Assembly (NCBI RefSeq): GCF_003992015.1
Contig: NZ_RQVK01000006.1
Location: 1-64,000, forward strand
Length of the DNA: 64,000 nt
Direction: 5' to 3'
Origin: Veillonella sp. VA137
GTDB lineage: Bacteria; Bacillota; Negativicutes; Veillonellales; Veillonellaceae
In this document: positions 1-4,282 of the stretch, piece after piece
Numbering within the stretch: the stretch's first letter is position 1
How the letters are laid out: the number at the start of each line of letters is the position of its first letter
Made by a program: the position numbers and the translations under genes
Notes under the pieces: generated by a model
The model's database searches: none
The model's input: only the letters and a program-made list of their open reading frames with translations
Told to the model about the DNA's origin: nothing

Positions 1-350
1 ATCTAGATGAGTCTGTTAGTGTTACTTTAGATAAGAATTTGGCTCTCTATAAAAAGTTTATGGAAAAATTGTCTGGTTCATTATTTAGGAAGATTCCTAA
101 AGATAAGTTGAAACTTTTAAAGACAACTGGATATGAAGAATTTAAAAACTTATCTCTAGAAGATCAGGTATTTACATTAATGAAAATACTCAATTTAATT
201 ACTAACTTCACTGATAATCGAAATATAGATGGACTTAATATAAATATATCTAGAGGTACAATAGGTGTAAATTTAACTAATAAAAGCAGTTTCAGTGTCA
301 TCACAACATCTATTACGGGTTTATATGAAAATGAAATTAAAATAAAATAG
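1..350 (+). CDS. cas9: Cas9 endonuclease, C-terminal fragment (cut by window edge)
   Basis: The frame is already open at the window edge (first full codon at base 3) and closes with TAG at 348-350, giving 115 visible residues. The tail contains SITGLYE, the motif that closes the PAM-interacting domain of type II-A Cas9 proteins; SpCas9 ends with the same motif. The segment before it (LEDQVFTLMKILNLI) matches the helical lead-in to that tail. Cas9 is the crRNA/tracrRNA-guided nuclease of the system, and this part would bind PAM and guide scaffold. A TTG at 39 is internal, not a start. The gene lies 13 bases before cas1 and is the first visible member of the operon. HNH and RuvC domains lie outside the window, so activity cannot be judged. 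Confidence 0.9.
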   Translation, partial: LDESVSVTLDKNLALYKKFMEKLSGSLFRKIPKDKLKLLKTTGYEEFKNLSLEDQVFTLMKILNLITNFTDNRNIDGLNINISRGTIGVNLTNKSSFSVITTSITGLYENEIKIK

Positions 351-363
351 AATAGGAGATATT

Positions 364-1242
364 ATGAGTTGGCGAACGGTAGTTATAACTAAGCAATCTA
401 AACTTGATTTTAAAATGAATTATATGATTGTTCGGCAGGGATTCGATGTGAAGAAAGTTTTTATTGATGAAATTTATATGCTTATCATTGAATCTACAGC
501 AGTTAGTTTGACTGCCGTTTTGCTGAATGCTTTAGTTAAAGCAAAAGTAAAAATTGTATTTTGTGATGAAAAGAAAAACCCTAGTAGTGAAGTGATGCCT
601 TTGTATGGTTCTCATAATGCGAGTAAAAAGTGCCGGTTACAGGTGAGTTGGGACAGTGAAATCAAAGGGCTGGTTTGGAGTAAAATTATTGCTGACAAGA
701 TTAACAATCAAGCACGGATACTTGAAAAATATGGACATCAAGAAGAAAGTGAGTTGTTGCAATCCTATCGAGATGAAGTACGAATTAATGATATGACACA
801 ACGGGAAGGCCATGCAGCTAAAGTATACTTTAATAGCTTGTTTGGAAATACTTTCACAAGGGAGCAAGAAAATCCAATTAATGCGGGGTTAGATTACGGG
901 TATAGTATACTTCTTTCTGCGGTGAATCGTGAAATTGTTAAGAATGGATTTATCACGCAATTAGGTATCAATCATCGAAATCAATTTAATCTATACAATC
1001 TAGGATCAGACCTGGTGGAGGCGTTGCGTGTGTTTGTAGATCATAAGGTGATTAGTCTTGAGGTACAGGAGTTTGGGAAAGATGAAAAAATCAGCTTAGT
1101 CCAGCTCCTATCATTAGATGTAGATATAGATGGATACCGATTTTTATTAAAGGATGCCATCGGCATTTATTGTAAAAGCGTATTAGATGCATTGACGTAC
1201 CAAGATCCTGGGTTAGTTAGGTTTATAGAATATGAGTTATAG
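364..1242 (+). CDS. cas1: CRISPR-associated integrase Cas1, type II
   Basis: 292 residues, the usual size of type II Cas1. Cas1 is the metal-dependent integrase that, with Cas2, inserts new spacers at the leader end of the array. The three metal ligands are visible: E148 in REGHAAKVYF, H204 in GINHRNQFN and E219 in GSDLVEALR, matching the E/H/E triad of streptococcal II-A Cas1. AGGAG at 355-359 fixes the ATG at 364. It follows cas9 by 13 bases and overlaps cas2 by 11 bases, so the adaptation genes should be translationally coupled. The frame is intact. Confidence 0.97.
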   Translation: MSWRTVVITKQSKLDFKMNYMIVRQGFDVKKVFIDEIYMLIIESTAVSLTAVLLNALVKAKVKIVFCDEKKNPSSEVMPLYGSHNASKKCRLQVSWDSEIKGLVWSKIIADKINNQARILEKYGHQEESELLQSYRDEVRINDMTQREGHAAKVYFNSLFGNTFTREQENPINAGLDYGYSILLSAVNREIVKNGFITQLGINHRNQFNLYNLGSDLVEALRVFVDHKVISLEVQEFGKDEKISLVQLLSLDVDIDGYRFLLKDAIGIYCKSVLDALTYQDPGLVRFIEYEL

Positions 1243-1552
1243 ATTTATGAGAGTATTCGTAATGTTTGATTTACCAACAGATACATCGGTTCACAGAAAG
1301 GCCTATCGTGATTTTAGAAAATTTTTGTTAGTTAATGGGTTTATTATGTTACAAGAATCGGTGTATGTAAAGTTGGTATTAAATGGAACCAGTGTTAGAT
1401 TGTTGGAAAAGCAACTGCGAGAACATAAACCGGCGGATGGAAATATTTGCTTATTAACTGTGACTGAAAAGCAATATTCAAAAATGGAAATATTGACGGG
1501 AGAGGTGCAGTCGGAAGTCCTAGATACAACAGAGAGAGTGATTGTACTGTGA
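1232..1552 (+). CDS. cas2: CRISPR-associated protein Cas2
   Basis: 106 residues, normal for Cas2, the dimeric ferredoxin-fold partner that bridges two Cas1 dimers in the spacer integration complex. The first beta strand MRVFVMFDLP carries the conserved Asp at residue 13. The ATG lies inside the last codons of cas1 (11-base overlap), and the stop overlaps the GTG start of csn2 by four bases. This tight packing indicates one polycistronic adaptation unit. No truncation is seen. Confidence 0.96.
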   Translation: MSYRFMRVFVMFDLPTDTSVHRKAYRDFRKFLLVNGFIMLQESVYVKLVLNGTSVRLLEKQLREHKPADGNICLLTVTEKQYSKMEILTGEVQSEVLDTTERVIVL

Positions 1553-2223
1553 AACTTTTTTATCAAGACTCAACGATAGAGATTAACTTGGATACTACTA
1601 AAATTAATTGCCTGTGTATAGAAAAACATAGTGTATTTCGCCATATGATTTTAGAATTGTATGAACAATATAGTGGTGGTGAAGGGCCTTGGATTTATAA
1701 TGTGAATGCCAAAGGAGTAGCCATTGATAAGTCACTTCATGTCATCATGAACCCCATCCAGGTAGATGTGAATAGTAAAACAATACTAACAAAGTTAACG
1801 GCCAATTTGGTGAAAGAAAGTAATTTAATGATGGAAGAGTTACATGAAACGGTGTCTAGATTACATCAATTTTACTATCAACTGGAATTTGGATCATCGA
1901 TTGATATCGAGCATAAGGAAGAAATCGTTGCTGCGGATATCATCAAGTTAGGAGCTTTTAAAATACCTGAAAATGATGCGGATCCAGTGGACCGTTTAGT
2001 AGACTATATCAATATAGTTCATGAACTATTAAATCCAGATCTATTTGTGATTGCAAATATAGAGATGTATTTAGACGTGGAAGAATTACATGCATTTTTT
2101 ACGACTATGTTAGCGAAACAGCTATGCGTTTTATGTATATCTTCTGGGGTACATGGACTAGATGATATTGATAAATCTTTTATTAATGGGTATACTTTAG
2201 ATAGCGACTTTTGTTTGATATAA
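1549..2223 (+). CDS. csn2: Csn2, type II-A adaptation protein
   Basis: 224 residues starting at GTG 1549, overlapping the cas2 stop. Length and position (last gene, next to the array) match Csn2, the ring-forming DNA-end-binding protein that defines subtype II-A and is needed for spacer acquisition with Cas1, Cas2 and Cas9. The N-terminal strand MKLFYQDSTIEINL, the FRHMILELYEQY helix and the FVIANIEMYLDVEELHAFF segment fit the short (about 220 aa) Csn2 family. Its last codons also contain a good promoter (2168-2196) reading into the array, so the end of the gene does double duty. Only 26 bases separate its stop from the first repeat. Confidence 0.93.
   Translation: MKLFYQDSTIEINLDTTKINCLCIEKHSVFRHMILELYEQYSGGEGPWIYNVNAKGVAIDKSLHVIMNPIQVDVNSKTILTKLTANLVKESNLMMEELHETVSRLHQFYYQLEFGSSIDIEHKEEIVAADIIKLGAFKIPENDADPVDRLVDYINIVHELLNPDLFVIANIEMYLDVEELHAFFTTMLAKQLCVLCISSGVHGLDDIDKSFINGYTLDSDFCLI
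2168..2196 (+). promoter_or_regulatory. Putative CRISPR array promoter inside csn2
   Basis: TTGATA at 2168-2173 and TATACT at 2191-2196 are separated by 17 bases, one mismatch each from the sigma-A consensus. Transcription would start near 2203, about 47 bases upstream of repeat 1. The promoter lies wholly within csn2 codons. No intergenic space exists for a leader promoter, so this is the best candidate for pre-crRNA synthesis. Confidence 0.7.
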
Positions 2224-2228
2224 CAGCG

Positions 2229-2265
2229 TTTACAGAATCACACTTGGTGGTTTGAGAGTAGTGTG
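2229..2265 (+). promoter_or_regulatory. CRISPR leader element complementary to the first repeat
   Basis: TTTACAGAATCACAC at 2229-2243 is the reverse complement of repeat positions 12-26, with one mismatch to the canonical repeat (position 21) and none to the T-type repeats at the far end of the array. Pairing with repeat 1 leaves a 17-base loop. In RNA starting near 2203 this would form a stem at the 5' end of the pre-crRNA. A leader RNA that pairs with the first repeat has been reported for the Streptococcus pyogenes II-A array; that this element acts the same way is inference. Confidence 0.6.
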
Positions 2266-3802
2266 ATTCCGTAAATGACTCAAACTCGCTAAGAGGTAGA
2301 CAATCCTGTTACGTTGTTTGAGAGTAGTGTGATTCCGTAAATGACTCAAACTTCAGGATTTAAATAAATCGCTTACTCCCCGTTTGAGAGTAGTGTGATT
2401 CCGTAAATGACTCAAACAATTTACAAAGTGTAAATTCTACAAGAAATGTTTGAGAGTAGTGTGATTCCGTAAATGACTCAAACTTCATACTCATCAAAGA
2501 TATCAACTCCACCGTTTGAGAGTAGTGTGATTCCGTAAATGACTCAAACCAGCTTTTACTCATGGATATTTTTATAACCGTTTGAGAGTAGTGTGATTCC
2601 GTAAATGACTCAAACCAAGTCCACATATATACAGTGCTGCCACTAGTTTGAGAGTAGTGTGATTCCGTAAATGACTCAAACAAAATACAAAGATTAGATT
2701 TTTAAAGCATTGTTTGAGAGTAGTGTGATTCCGTAAATGACTCAAACCGAATGGCAACATAAATTAGAAGTCATTAAGTTTGAGAGTAGTGTGATTCCGT
2801 AAATGACTCAAACGACAGTTAATGTATATACTTGTAATGGGTCGTTTGAGAGTAGTGTGATTCCGTAAATGACTCAAACCTTATGAAAGTTTAACATCTG
2901 CTCCTACATGTTTGAGAGTAGTGTGATTCCGTAAATGACTCAAACTAAAGCATACTTAAATATACCTAAAATAAAGTTTGAGAGTAGTGTGATTCCGTAA
3001 ATGACTCAAACACAAGCATAATATTTAAAAAAGAAATAATGGTTTGAGAGTAGTGTGATTCCGTAAATGACTCAAACGAAATAAATTGCGGTCTGCGACG
3101 CTTTTTTGTTTGAGAGTAGTGTGATTCCGTAAATGACTCAAACTAAAGGATAGTGAAGGCAACGTAGACGATTGTTTGAGAGTAGTGTGATTCCGTAAAT
3201 GACTCAAACATATGATTGTGCATACACTTGTTATGGAAAGTTTGAGAGTAGTGTGATTCAGTAAATGACTCAAACAGAAGGTAGTTTTACATACCCCTAA
3301 TGATGGTTTGAGAGTAGTGTGATTCCGTAAATGACTCAAACAGTCGCCAGTATGCTAGGCTACAGCATGTAGTTTGAGAGTAGTGTGATTCTGTAAATGA
3401 CTCAAACACGTCATGAATACTACTATAGCTCCTTTGAGTTTGAGAGTAGTGTGATTCTATAAATGACTCAAACTCTGCCACTATCACCCAATCTGCGTGA
3501 CAGGTTTGAGAGTAGTGTGATTCTGTATATGATTCAAATATACTGATCCATCCGCCCTACGGTACGTTGGTTTGAGAGTAGTGTGATTCTGTAAATGACT
3601 TAAACTTCGGAGAGGCTTTTGGGGGGTTAATTATCGTTTGAGAGTAGTGTGATTCTGTAAATGGCTCAAACAGGTCAAAATTCGCTATTTTTTAGGTAAT
3701 GTTTGAGAGTAGTGTGACTCTGTGAATGACTCAAACAACATAATGCAGTGGATCCGAACACTTTGGGTTTGAAAGTAGTATGATTCTAAATATATCTCAT
3801 AT
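2250..3802 (+). CRISPR. Type II-A CRISPR array, 23 spacers, decaying distal end
   Basis: 23 repeats of 36 bases start at 2250 and recur every 66 bases. Spacers are 30 bases, except the one at 3672-3700 (29 bases). A 24th, degenerate repeat lies at 3767-3802: its first half is recognisable and its second half is lost. The repeat begins GTTTGAG and ends CTCAAAC, a 7-base terminal inverted repeat. Repeats 1-15 and 17 are identical. Repeat 16 has A at position 21. Repeats 18-23 carry T at position 21 and further substitutions (repeat 19 at 22, repeat 20 at several sites, repeat 21 at 32, repeat 22 at 29, repeat 23 at 18 and 24). The decay places the leader next to csn2 and the oldest spacers near 3766. 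All 23 spacers differ. No tracrRNA with a full anti-repeat is visible in the window; it is probably upstream of cas9. Confidence 0.98.
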
Positions 3803-3880: not shown

Positions 3881-4282
3881 ATGGCTAAATACGAATGGTG
3901 TACTGATGAATACCTAGAAAAGAAAAAAGAATGTTTTGATGCTTGTTTAAGTAAAGAATTTTTACAAGACTTGCAGGAATTGGTGCGTGAACATTATGAT
4001 TTCGATGATGACTATCGCATTGGTAACTGGGACTTTATGGATGAAGATACTGTGGGTGTATACCGATTTGTCGAGACTTTAGCTGAAAAACATGGTGTTC
4101 AGGAACTGATTACCTTTTTAGACTCATTGGATTGGTGTGAGTATGATCTTGCAATGGATACCATGTTTGTTACCTATGGTAGAATGTTTCATTTGTTTAC
4201 GCCAAAACGGCGCTATAGAAATCTATTTAAAGCAAAAGCTTTACATTATAAAGCTTGGATGCGAGAATTGAGGAAAAAATAA
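3881..4282 (+). CDS. Hypothetical protein, acidic, Trp/Tyr-rich
   Basis: 133 residues that I do not recognise. The N-terminal half is acidic and aromatic (DFDDDYRIGNWDFMDEDTVG) and the C-terminus is basic (RRYRNLFKAKALHYKAWMRELRKK). There is no signal peptide or membrane segment, so it is probably cytoplasmic. AAGGAGG at 3868-3874 sets the ATG at 3881, and TATAAT at 3847-3852 may be a -10 box in the 78-base gap after the array. It ends one base before the metallophosphoesterase gene, so the two are almost certainly co-transcribed. Position next to CRISPR does not by itself imply a defence role. Confidence 0.8.
   Translation: MAKYEWCTDEYLEKKKECFDACLSKEFLQDLQELVREHYDFDDDYRIGNWDFMDEDTVGVYRFVETLAEKHGVQELITFLDSLDWCEYDLAMDTMFVTYGRMFHLFTPKRRYRNLFKAKALHYKAWMRELRKK

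What the first reader, a model, noticed from the sequence alone, without database searches (positions are those of the whole stretch)
2229..2265. CRISPR leader carries a 15-base complement of the first repeat
TTTACAGAATCACAC between csn2 and repeat 1 is the reverse complement of repeat positions 12-26. In the transcript it would fold onto repeat 1 with a 17-base loop. In Streptococcus pyogenes II-A a leader RNA that pairs with the first repeat is reported to favour the newest spacer. Here the element is far longer than chance pairing would predict and sits at exactly that place. Alternatives are a cruciform recognised by Cas1-Cas2-Csn2, or a relic of a tracrRNA anti-repeat.
Basis: partly seen in the sequence, partly recalled or inferred. 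Interest (0 to 1): 0.72.

Follow-up and report, generated by a model that had tools for sequence, protein, structure and literature searches.

The report
CRISPR leader hairpin masking first repeat
The short RNA stretch just before this bacterium's CRISPR memory array is built to fold onto and mask the array's first repeat, a known trick that stops the Cas9 system making a useless guide RNA; the match is kept in step across many related bacteria, and this strain has lost a neighbouring piece of the leader that normally marks where new memories are inserted.

Summary
Confirmed, with one correction. Leader bases 2229-2244 (TTTACAGAATCACACT) are complementary to positions 11-26 of repeat 1 (R1), with one A·C mismatch; the match is perfect only to older repeats in the array. 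The RNA hairpin (-20.9 kcal/mol) is far from chance: 15 of 16 bases pair, and the best of 3000 shuffles reached 13. The element is conserved and covaries with the repeat. In nine related leaders, 9 of 18 helix pairs change on both sides and no shuffle reached the covariation score. Across 22 groups, leaders pair best with their own repeats. An intact tracrRNA lies divergently beside cas9, so the element is not a tracrRNA relic. It fits the leader-R1 hairpin reported for II-A systems (Liao et al. 2022), which keeps tracrRNA off R1 and favours the newest spacer. Two additions. (i) In most relatives (16 of 22 groups, about 1.5 expected) leader and R1 are predicted to fold as a three-way junction that also masks the 5' end of R1 and the leader-end integration motif. 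(ii) This strain lacks 40 bp present in its 99.6%-identical sister; only the outer helix remains and the ATTTGGG leader-anchoring motif is gone. New member of a known kind. All function is inferred.

The parts
1..350 (+). 3' end of cas9 (the gene is split between contigs C4 and C6 of the draft genome)
   Evidence: aligns with the 3' end of the cas9 of sister locus L026; the rest is on C4:1-3835 (-)
364..1242 (+). cas1 (type II)
   Evidence: TIGR03639 E=1.3e-88
1232..1552 (+). cas2
   Evidence: TIGR01573 E=3e-21
1549..2223 (+). csn2, the II-A marker; its stop codon is 26 nt before R1
   Evidence: TIGR01866 E=1.6e-36
2168..2196 (+). candidate leader promoter TTGATA-17-TATACT inside the csn2 3' end; similar hexamers at the same offset in most close relatives, but the region is also coding
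   Evidence: consensus match only; not above the shuffle count
2224..2249 (+). leader left between csn2 and R1 (26 nt; 66 nt in the sister)
2225..2244 (+). 5' arm of the leader-R1 helix (P1); core TTTACAGAATCACACT at 2229-2244
2245..2259 (+). hairpin loop, including R1 positions 1-10
2260..2280 (+). 3' arm of the helix = R1 positions 11-31 (A·C mismatch at 2234/2270)
2249..2250 (.). junction of a 40-bp deletion relative to Veillonella sp. 3891 (lost: GTGACTGGACAAGCTTTGGAATCCCAAACTCGTATTTGGG, including the leader-anchoring motif ATTTGGG); 3-bp GGT microhomology
2250..3802 (+). CRISPR array: 36-nt repeats, 30-nt spacers, about 23 full repeats plus a degenerate last one; newest end next to csn2

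Best explanation
The element is the leader arm of a leader-R1 RNA hairpin of a type II-A CRISPR-Cas9 system. When the array is transcribed, leader nucleotides 2225-2244 fold back on R1 as soon as R1 is made. They occupy the same repeat bases that the tracrRNA anti-repeat needs (leader and tracrRNA share 16 identical nucleotides). R1 is therefore not turned into an 'extraneous' crRNA whose guide would be leader sequence, while R2 and later repeats remain free for tracrRNA, RNase III and Cas9. By analogy with S. pyogenes this also favours the crRNA of the newest spacer. Because each new spacer is inserted between the leader-R1 copy and the older array, the hairpin re-forms after every acquisition. 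In this strain a 40-bp deletion has shortened the loop from 55 to 15 nt and removed the inner part of the structure and the leader-anchoring motif: the R1 mask stays, but new-spacer insertion is predicted to be impaired or misdirected. Shown here: sequence, complementarity, covariation, the tracrRNA and the deletion. Inferred: transcription, folding in the cell, tracrRNA blocking, spacer prioritisation and the acquisition defect.
For: Hairpin -20.9 kcal/mol, z -3.9. Leader:R1 duplex better than 500 of 500 shuffles and than all 30 non-cognate repeats. Over 22 groups, Fisher p about 4e-16 against shuffles and 2e-6 against swapped repeats. In nine leaders aligned by sequence, 9 of 18 pairs change on both sides; covariation score 0.390 against 0.167 in shuffles, 0 of 500 reach it, and it collapses when the partner strand is slid. 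Mismatches to the exact complement are G·U-type 25 against A·C-type 5. Intact tracrRNA divergent from cas9, with promoter-like site and terminator. Predicted net tracrRNA binding: R1 in its leader -12.6, R2 behind spacer 1 -27.8 kcal/mol. Mechanism precedent described in PMC13187072 and PMC12080349.
Against: No transcript data. R1 carries an A·C mismatch that has not been compensated. Eight of 22 groups show no significant pairing by duplex energy (for example L042/L044, L053, L027, L061). The promoter is only a consensus match inside coding sequence and is not above the shuffle count in its region. The original paper (Liao et al. 2022) is not held, so details of the precedent come from later papers citing it and from my own knowledge.
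Confidence: 0.82

Rival explanations
1. DNA-level element: the inverted repeat forms a cruciform or binding site recognised by Cas1-Cas2-Csn2 during spacer insertion.
For: It lies beside the integration site; inner parts of the relatives' leaders form an inverted repeat that includes the leader-anchoring motif.
Against: Departures from perfect complementarity are mostly G·U-type (25 against 5 A·C-type; about 63-66% G·U-type expected from swaps and shuffles, so the excess is modest). In relatives the two arms are mostly some 30-80 nt apart. In S. thermophilus only the last 10 bp of the leader are needed for integration and upstream leader mutations do not disturb it (PMC6895254).
Confidence: 0.06
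2. Relic or duplicate of the tracrRNA anti-repeat with no function of its own.
For: The 16-nt core is identical to the anti-repeat of the genome's tracrRNA.
Against: No nexus or terminator follows it; the tracrRNA is intact elsewhere; the leader element is at the equivalent place in distant genera and changes with the repeat, which a relic would not do. The identity follows from both being complements of the same repeat.
Confidence: 0.04
3. Spacer-prioritisation device rather than an extraneous-crRNA block: the leader structure mainly speeds processing at R2 (not exclusive with the main explanation).
For: Reported for S. pyogenes II-A, possibly through contacts with the second repeat (as cited in PMC13187072).
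Against: In type VI-B2 the similar architecture only blocks the extraneous crRNA. A specific contact between the conserved leader loop and tracrRNA was tested and not supported: cognate -14.4 against non-cognate -13.6 kcal/mol on average.
Confidence: 0.3
4. Chance complementarity.
For: None.
Against: 15 of 16 against a maximum of 13 in 3000 shuffles; conserved and covarying.
Confidence: 0.01

Closest known systems
Leader-R1 RNA hairpin of type II-A CRISPR-Cas9 (S. pyogenes model; Liao et al. 2022, Nat Microbiol 7:530, cited in PMC13187072 and PMC12080349)
   Same: II-A operon, newest spacer next to the leader, leader arm just upstream of R1, pairing that competes with the tracrRNA anti-repeat.
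   Different: Here only 26 nt separate csn2 from R1, the paired arm begins about 2 nt after the csn2 stop codon, and the leader-anchoring motif is missing; relatives are predicted to form a three-way junction with a small leader hairpin. I could not read the original paper to see whether such junctions are described there.
Leader-repeat hairpin of type VI-B and other Cas13 systems (PMC13187072)
   Same: Leader RNA pairs with the first repeat and blocks the extraneous crRNA.
   Different: Cas13, no tracrRNA; there the hairpin competes with an internal repeat hairpin and does not prioritise spacer 1.
Guide-sequestering hairpins and terminators upstream of II-C arrays (PMC12080349)
   Same: Counteract an extraneous crRNA. 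In this window the would-be guide (the 20 nt before R1) is itself mostly inside the hairpin because of the deletion.
   Different: II-C arrays have the opposite acquisition end and no leader-R1 helix.
Leader-anchoring motif of II-A arrays, group 1 ATTTGAG (PMC5382924, PMC6895254)
   Same: Most relatives end the leader in ATTTGGG or ATTTGAG directly before GTTTGAGA.
   Different: The window strain has lost it; its leader now ends CTTGGTG.

Membership tests
Type II-A CRISPR-Cas9 system | cas9, cas1, cas2 and csn2 in one operon with an adjacent array | tested here: met
   cas9 split over contigs C4 and C6, which match adjoining parts of the sister locus
Type II-A CRISPR-Cas9 system | tracrRNA with anti-repeat, lower stem, nexus-like hairpin and terminator | tested here: met
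   L016 about 3954-4077, divergent from cas9
II-A leader-R1 hairpin (Liao et al. 2022) | Leader segment complementary to R1, beyond chance | tested here: met
II-A leader-R1 hairpin (Liao et al. 2022) | Pairing covers repeat bases used by the tracrRNA anti-repeat | tested here: met
   same 16 nt in leader and tracrRNA; predicted competition
II-A leader-R1 hairpin (Liao et al. 2022) | Pairing maintained where the repeat differs (covariation) | tested here: met
II-A leader-R1 hairpin (Liao et al. 2022) | Leader is transcribed with the array | not testable with these tools
   only a promoter-like sequence at 2168-2196
II-A leader-R1 hairpin (Liao et al. 2022) | Hairpin blocks the extraneous crRNA and raises crRNA1 | not testable with these tools
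   needs RNA-seq and mutants
II-A group 1 leader end (ATTTGAG) | Conserved heptamer directly before R1 | tested here: not met
   CTTGGTG here; ATTTGGG in the sister
tracrRNA (relic) | Anti-repeat followed by lower stem, nexus and terminator | tested here: not met
   leader element runs directly into R1; no terminator-like site at 1900-2400

The most novel reading that the evidence does not exclude
In Negativicutes and some other Bacillota II-A systems, leader and R1 together fold into a conserved three-way junction: P1 (distal leader with R1 11-28), P2 (a small leader hairpin, often with a GUGAUG or GUAAUG loop) and P3 (proximal leader with the leader-anchoring motif and R1 1-10). The whole 5' part of R1 is masked, and the P2 loop may be a docking site for a protein or RNA. 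The window strain is a natural deletion mutant that lost P2, P3 and the anchoring motif but kept P1, so it may separate the hairpin's RNA-processing role from spacer acquisition.
Probability: 0.3. Interest if true: 0.58.

Novelty: new member of a known kind. Interest (0 to 1): 0.42.

Why it matters
It extends the leader-R1 hairpin to Veillonella and other Negativicutes and adds a comparative test (covariation and repeat-swap) that such a hairpin is under selection. If the deletion is real, this strain keeps the RNA mask while lacking the DNA motif for inserting new spacers, which would let the two leader functions be studied apart in a natural background.

Tried and rejected
(1) Contact between the conserved leader hairpin loop (GGUGAUG/GGUGGUGA) and the tracrRNA nexus: it looked good by eye in the window's sister (8 bp with UCAUCGCC), but over 17 genomes cognate pairs were no better than non-cognate ones. 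Rejected. (2) That the deletion makes R1 clearly more open to tracrRNA: predicted net binding is about the same in window and sister (-12.6 and -15.6 kcal/mol), so not claimed. (3) Rfam: no family matches the leader, array or tracrRNA regions above gathering score; one chance hit to SCARNA7 far below cut-off. (4) Reading Liao et al. 2022: not held. (5) csn2 relatives on plasmids as a Bacilli comparison: no match. (6) Exact protospacers for spacer 1 and for part of spacer 4 in viral contigs: none. (7) The genome-contig scan returned only the sister; the genome search gave the wider set. (9) A first detector for three-way junctions under-counted (11 of 25) because it mis-assigned P3 pairs; replaced by loop decomposition.

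Full report
What is there. The window starts inside cas9 and continues with cas1, cas2, csn2 and a CRISPR array. The 36-nt repeat GTTTGAGAGTAGTGTGATTCCGTAAATGACTCAAAC starts at 2250, and the degenerate repeats are at the far end, so the csn2 side is the newest end. The rest of cas9 is on contig C4 of the same draft genome, and the two contigs match adjoining parts of the sister locus. The nearest relative found is Veillonella sp. 3891 (locus L026): 99.6% identical over window 1-2249 with no gap.

Observation. Leader bases 2229-2244, TTTACAGAATCACACT, are complementary to R1 positions 11-26 except for A2234 against C2270. The RNA hairpin is predicted at -20.9 kcal/mol, z -3.9. Shuffled leaders never exceeded 13 of 16 complementary bases in 3000 trials, nor did about 20,000 other 26-mers of the window; the leader has 15. 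In the whole genome the core occurs, outside the repeats, only here and in the tracrRNA.

tracrRNA. It lies on C4 at about 3954-4077, divergent from cas9, with a promoter-like site, an anti-repeat GTTTGAGATATTTACAGAATCACACTACAAGTTCAAATA, a nexus-like hairpin and a terminator. Its anti-repeat shares the 16-nt core with the leader. The leader element has no nexus or terminator and runs directly into R1, so it is not a tracrRNA. Leader and tracrRNA both still carry the A that pairs with the older repeat form.

Relatives. A search of 28 genomes of the family, 380 of the class, 398 of the phylum and 150 of one further family gave 33 csn2-leader-R1 units. Repeats differ widely, and the leader element differs with them. 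Examples: repeat GTGTAATACTAGTGTGG with leader CACTAGTATGGCAC (L021); repeat GTGTTGTTTTAGATGGT with leader ACCATCTAAAACAACAC (L031); repeat GTGTAATTCTGTAAAT with leader ATTTACAGGATTACAC in the same genus (L025).

Statistics. Own-leader duplexes beat dinucleotide-shuffled leaders at p<0.05 in 14 of 22 groups (Fisher p about 4e-16) and beat swaps with other groups' repeats (Fisher p about 2e-6). On a plain sequence alignment of nine leaders, 88% of cells pair against 76% in shuffles, 9 of 18 pairs change on both sides, and the covariation score is 0.390 against 0.167 with 0 of 500 shuffles reaching it; sliding the partner by 1-3 columns destroys the signal. Departures from exact complementarity are G·U-type 25 to A·C-type 5, where swapped pairs give 390 to 232; this is modest support for selection on the transcribed RNA strand rather than on DNA.

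Larger structure in relatives. In most relatives the complete leader plus R1 is predicted to fold as a three-way junction: P1 as above, a small leader hairpin P2, and P3, in which the proximal leader pairs with R1 1-10 and often with the leader-anchoring motif. It is found in 22 of 28 tested leaders against 1.95 expected from shuffles; counting one per group from that table gives 16 of 22 against about 1.5. GTRATG occurs in 6 of 22 group representatives against 0.7 expected, and falls in or at the P2 loop. Stems of P2 differ in sequence but stay complementary (GATAC/GTATT, GCGCC/GGCGT, GAGT/GCTC, CTGCG/CGCAG). These are predictions from single-sequence folding; P2 and P3 were not given a formal covariation test. 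Contact between the P2 loop and tracrRNA was tested and not supported.

The window's leader is a deletion derivative. The sister leader is the same 26 nt plus GTGACTGGACAAGCTTTGGAATCCCAAACTCGTATTTGGG before R1. The window lacks exactly these 40 nt, with a 3-bp GGT microhomology at the ends; since all other close relatives have the longer form, the short one is derived. The loss removes P2, P3 and the motif ATTTGGG, the local form of the ATTTGAG leader end that is essential for acquisition in S. thermophilus CRISPR1 and conserved in many II-A loci (PMC5382924; the 10 bp next to the repeat, PMC6895254). The hairpin loop shrinks from 55 to 15 nt. The two strains share old spacers, but 14 leader-side spacers of the window and 21 of the sister are not shared, which suggests that both acquired spacers after they split; whether the window acquired any after the deletion cannot be told. 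An assembly error cannot be excluded without reads.

Mechanism. The II-A leader-R1 hairpin has been reported to keep tracrRNA off R1, so that no leader-derived 'extraneous' crRNA is made, and to speed maturation of crRNA1 (Liao et al. 2022 as described in PMC13187072 and PMC12080349). The sequence evidence here fits this. Predicted net tracrRNA binding is -12.6 kcal/mol for R1 in its leader and -27.8 for R2 behind spacer 1. The promoter-like TTGATA-17-TATACT at 2168-2196 would place the leader in the transcript; it sits at the same offset in most close relatives, but the region is coding and the match is not above chance for its region. In this strain most of the 20 nt that would serve as extraneous guide are themselves in the helix because of the deletion (inference).

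Exceptions. L042, L044 and L053, three genomes of one family of the order, have leaders of 24-52 nt with neither the anchoring motif nor the hairpin. L027, L028 and L061 show weak or no signal.

Verdict. The additions (covariation in Negativicutes, three-way junction, natural leader deletion) are of moderate interest.

Noticed in passing
window 2249/2250 against L026 6702-6741: A 40-bp leader deletion relative to the 99.6%-identical sister removes the leader-anchoring motif; spacer acquisition may be impaired in this strain.
   Followed up: partly
window 2270 and repeats 3372-3701: Repeat position 21 changed from T (old repeats) to C (new repeats); neither the leader nor the tracrRNA anti-repeat has compensated, so both have an A·C mismatch with current repeats.
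   Followed up: partly
L042, L044, L053 leaders: II-A arrays of one family in the order have short leaders without anchoring motif or leader-R1 hairpin; how they avoid the extraneous crRNA is unknown.
   Followed up: partly
L016 3940-3980: The tracrRNA 5' region could form a hairpin ATCTCAAA...TTTGAGAT upstream of the anti-repeat core.
   Followed up: no
L025 (G006): A same-genus genome matches only the last 60 residues of csn2 yet keeps the leader, its hairpin and an array; its leader end ATTTGGG is followed by an extra TTTGGG.
   Followed up: no
L023, L035, L036, L048, L056, L059 leaders: Conserved GTGATGG in the loop of a small leader hairpin whose stem sequence varies; possible binding site for an unknown partner.
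   Followed up: partly
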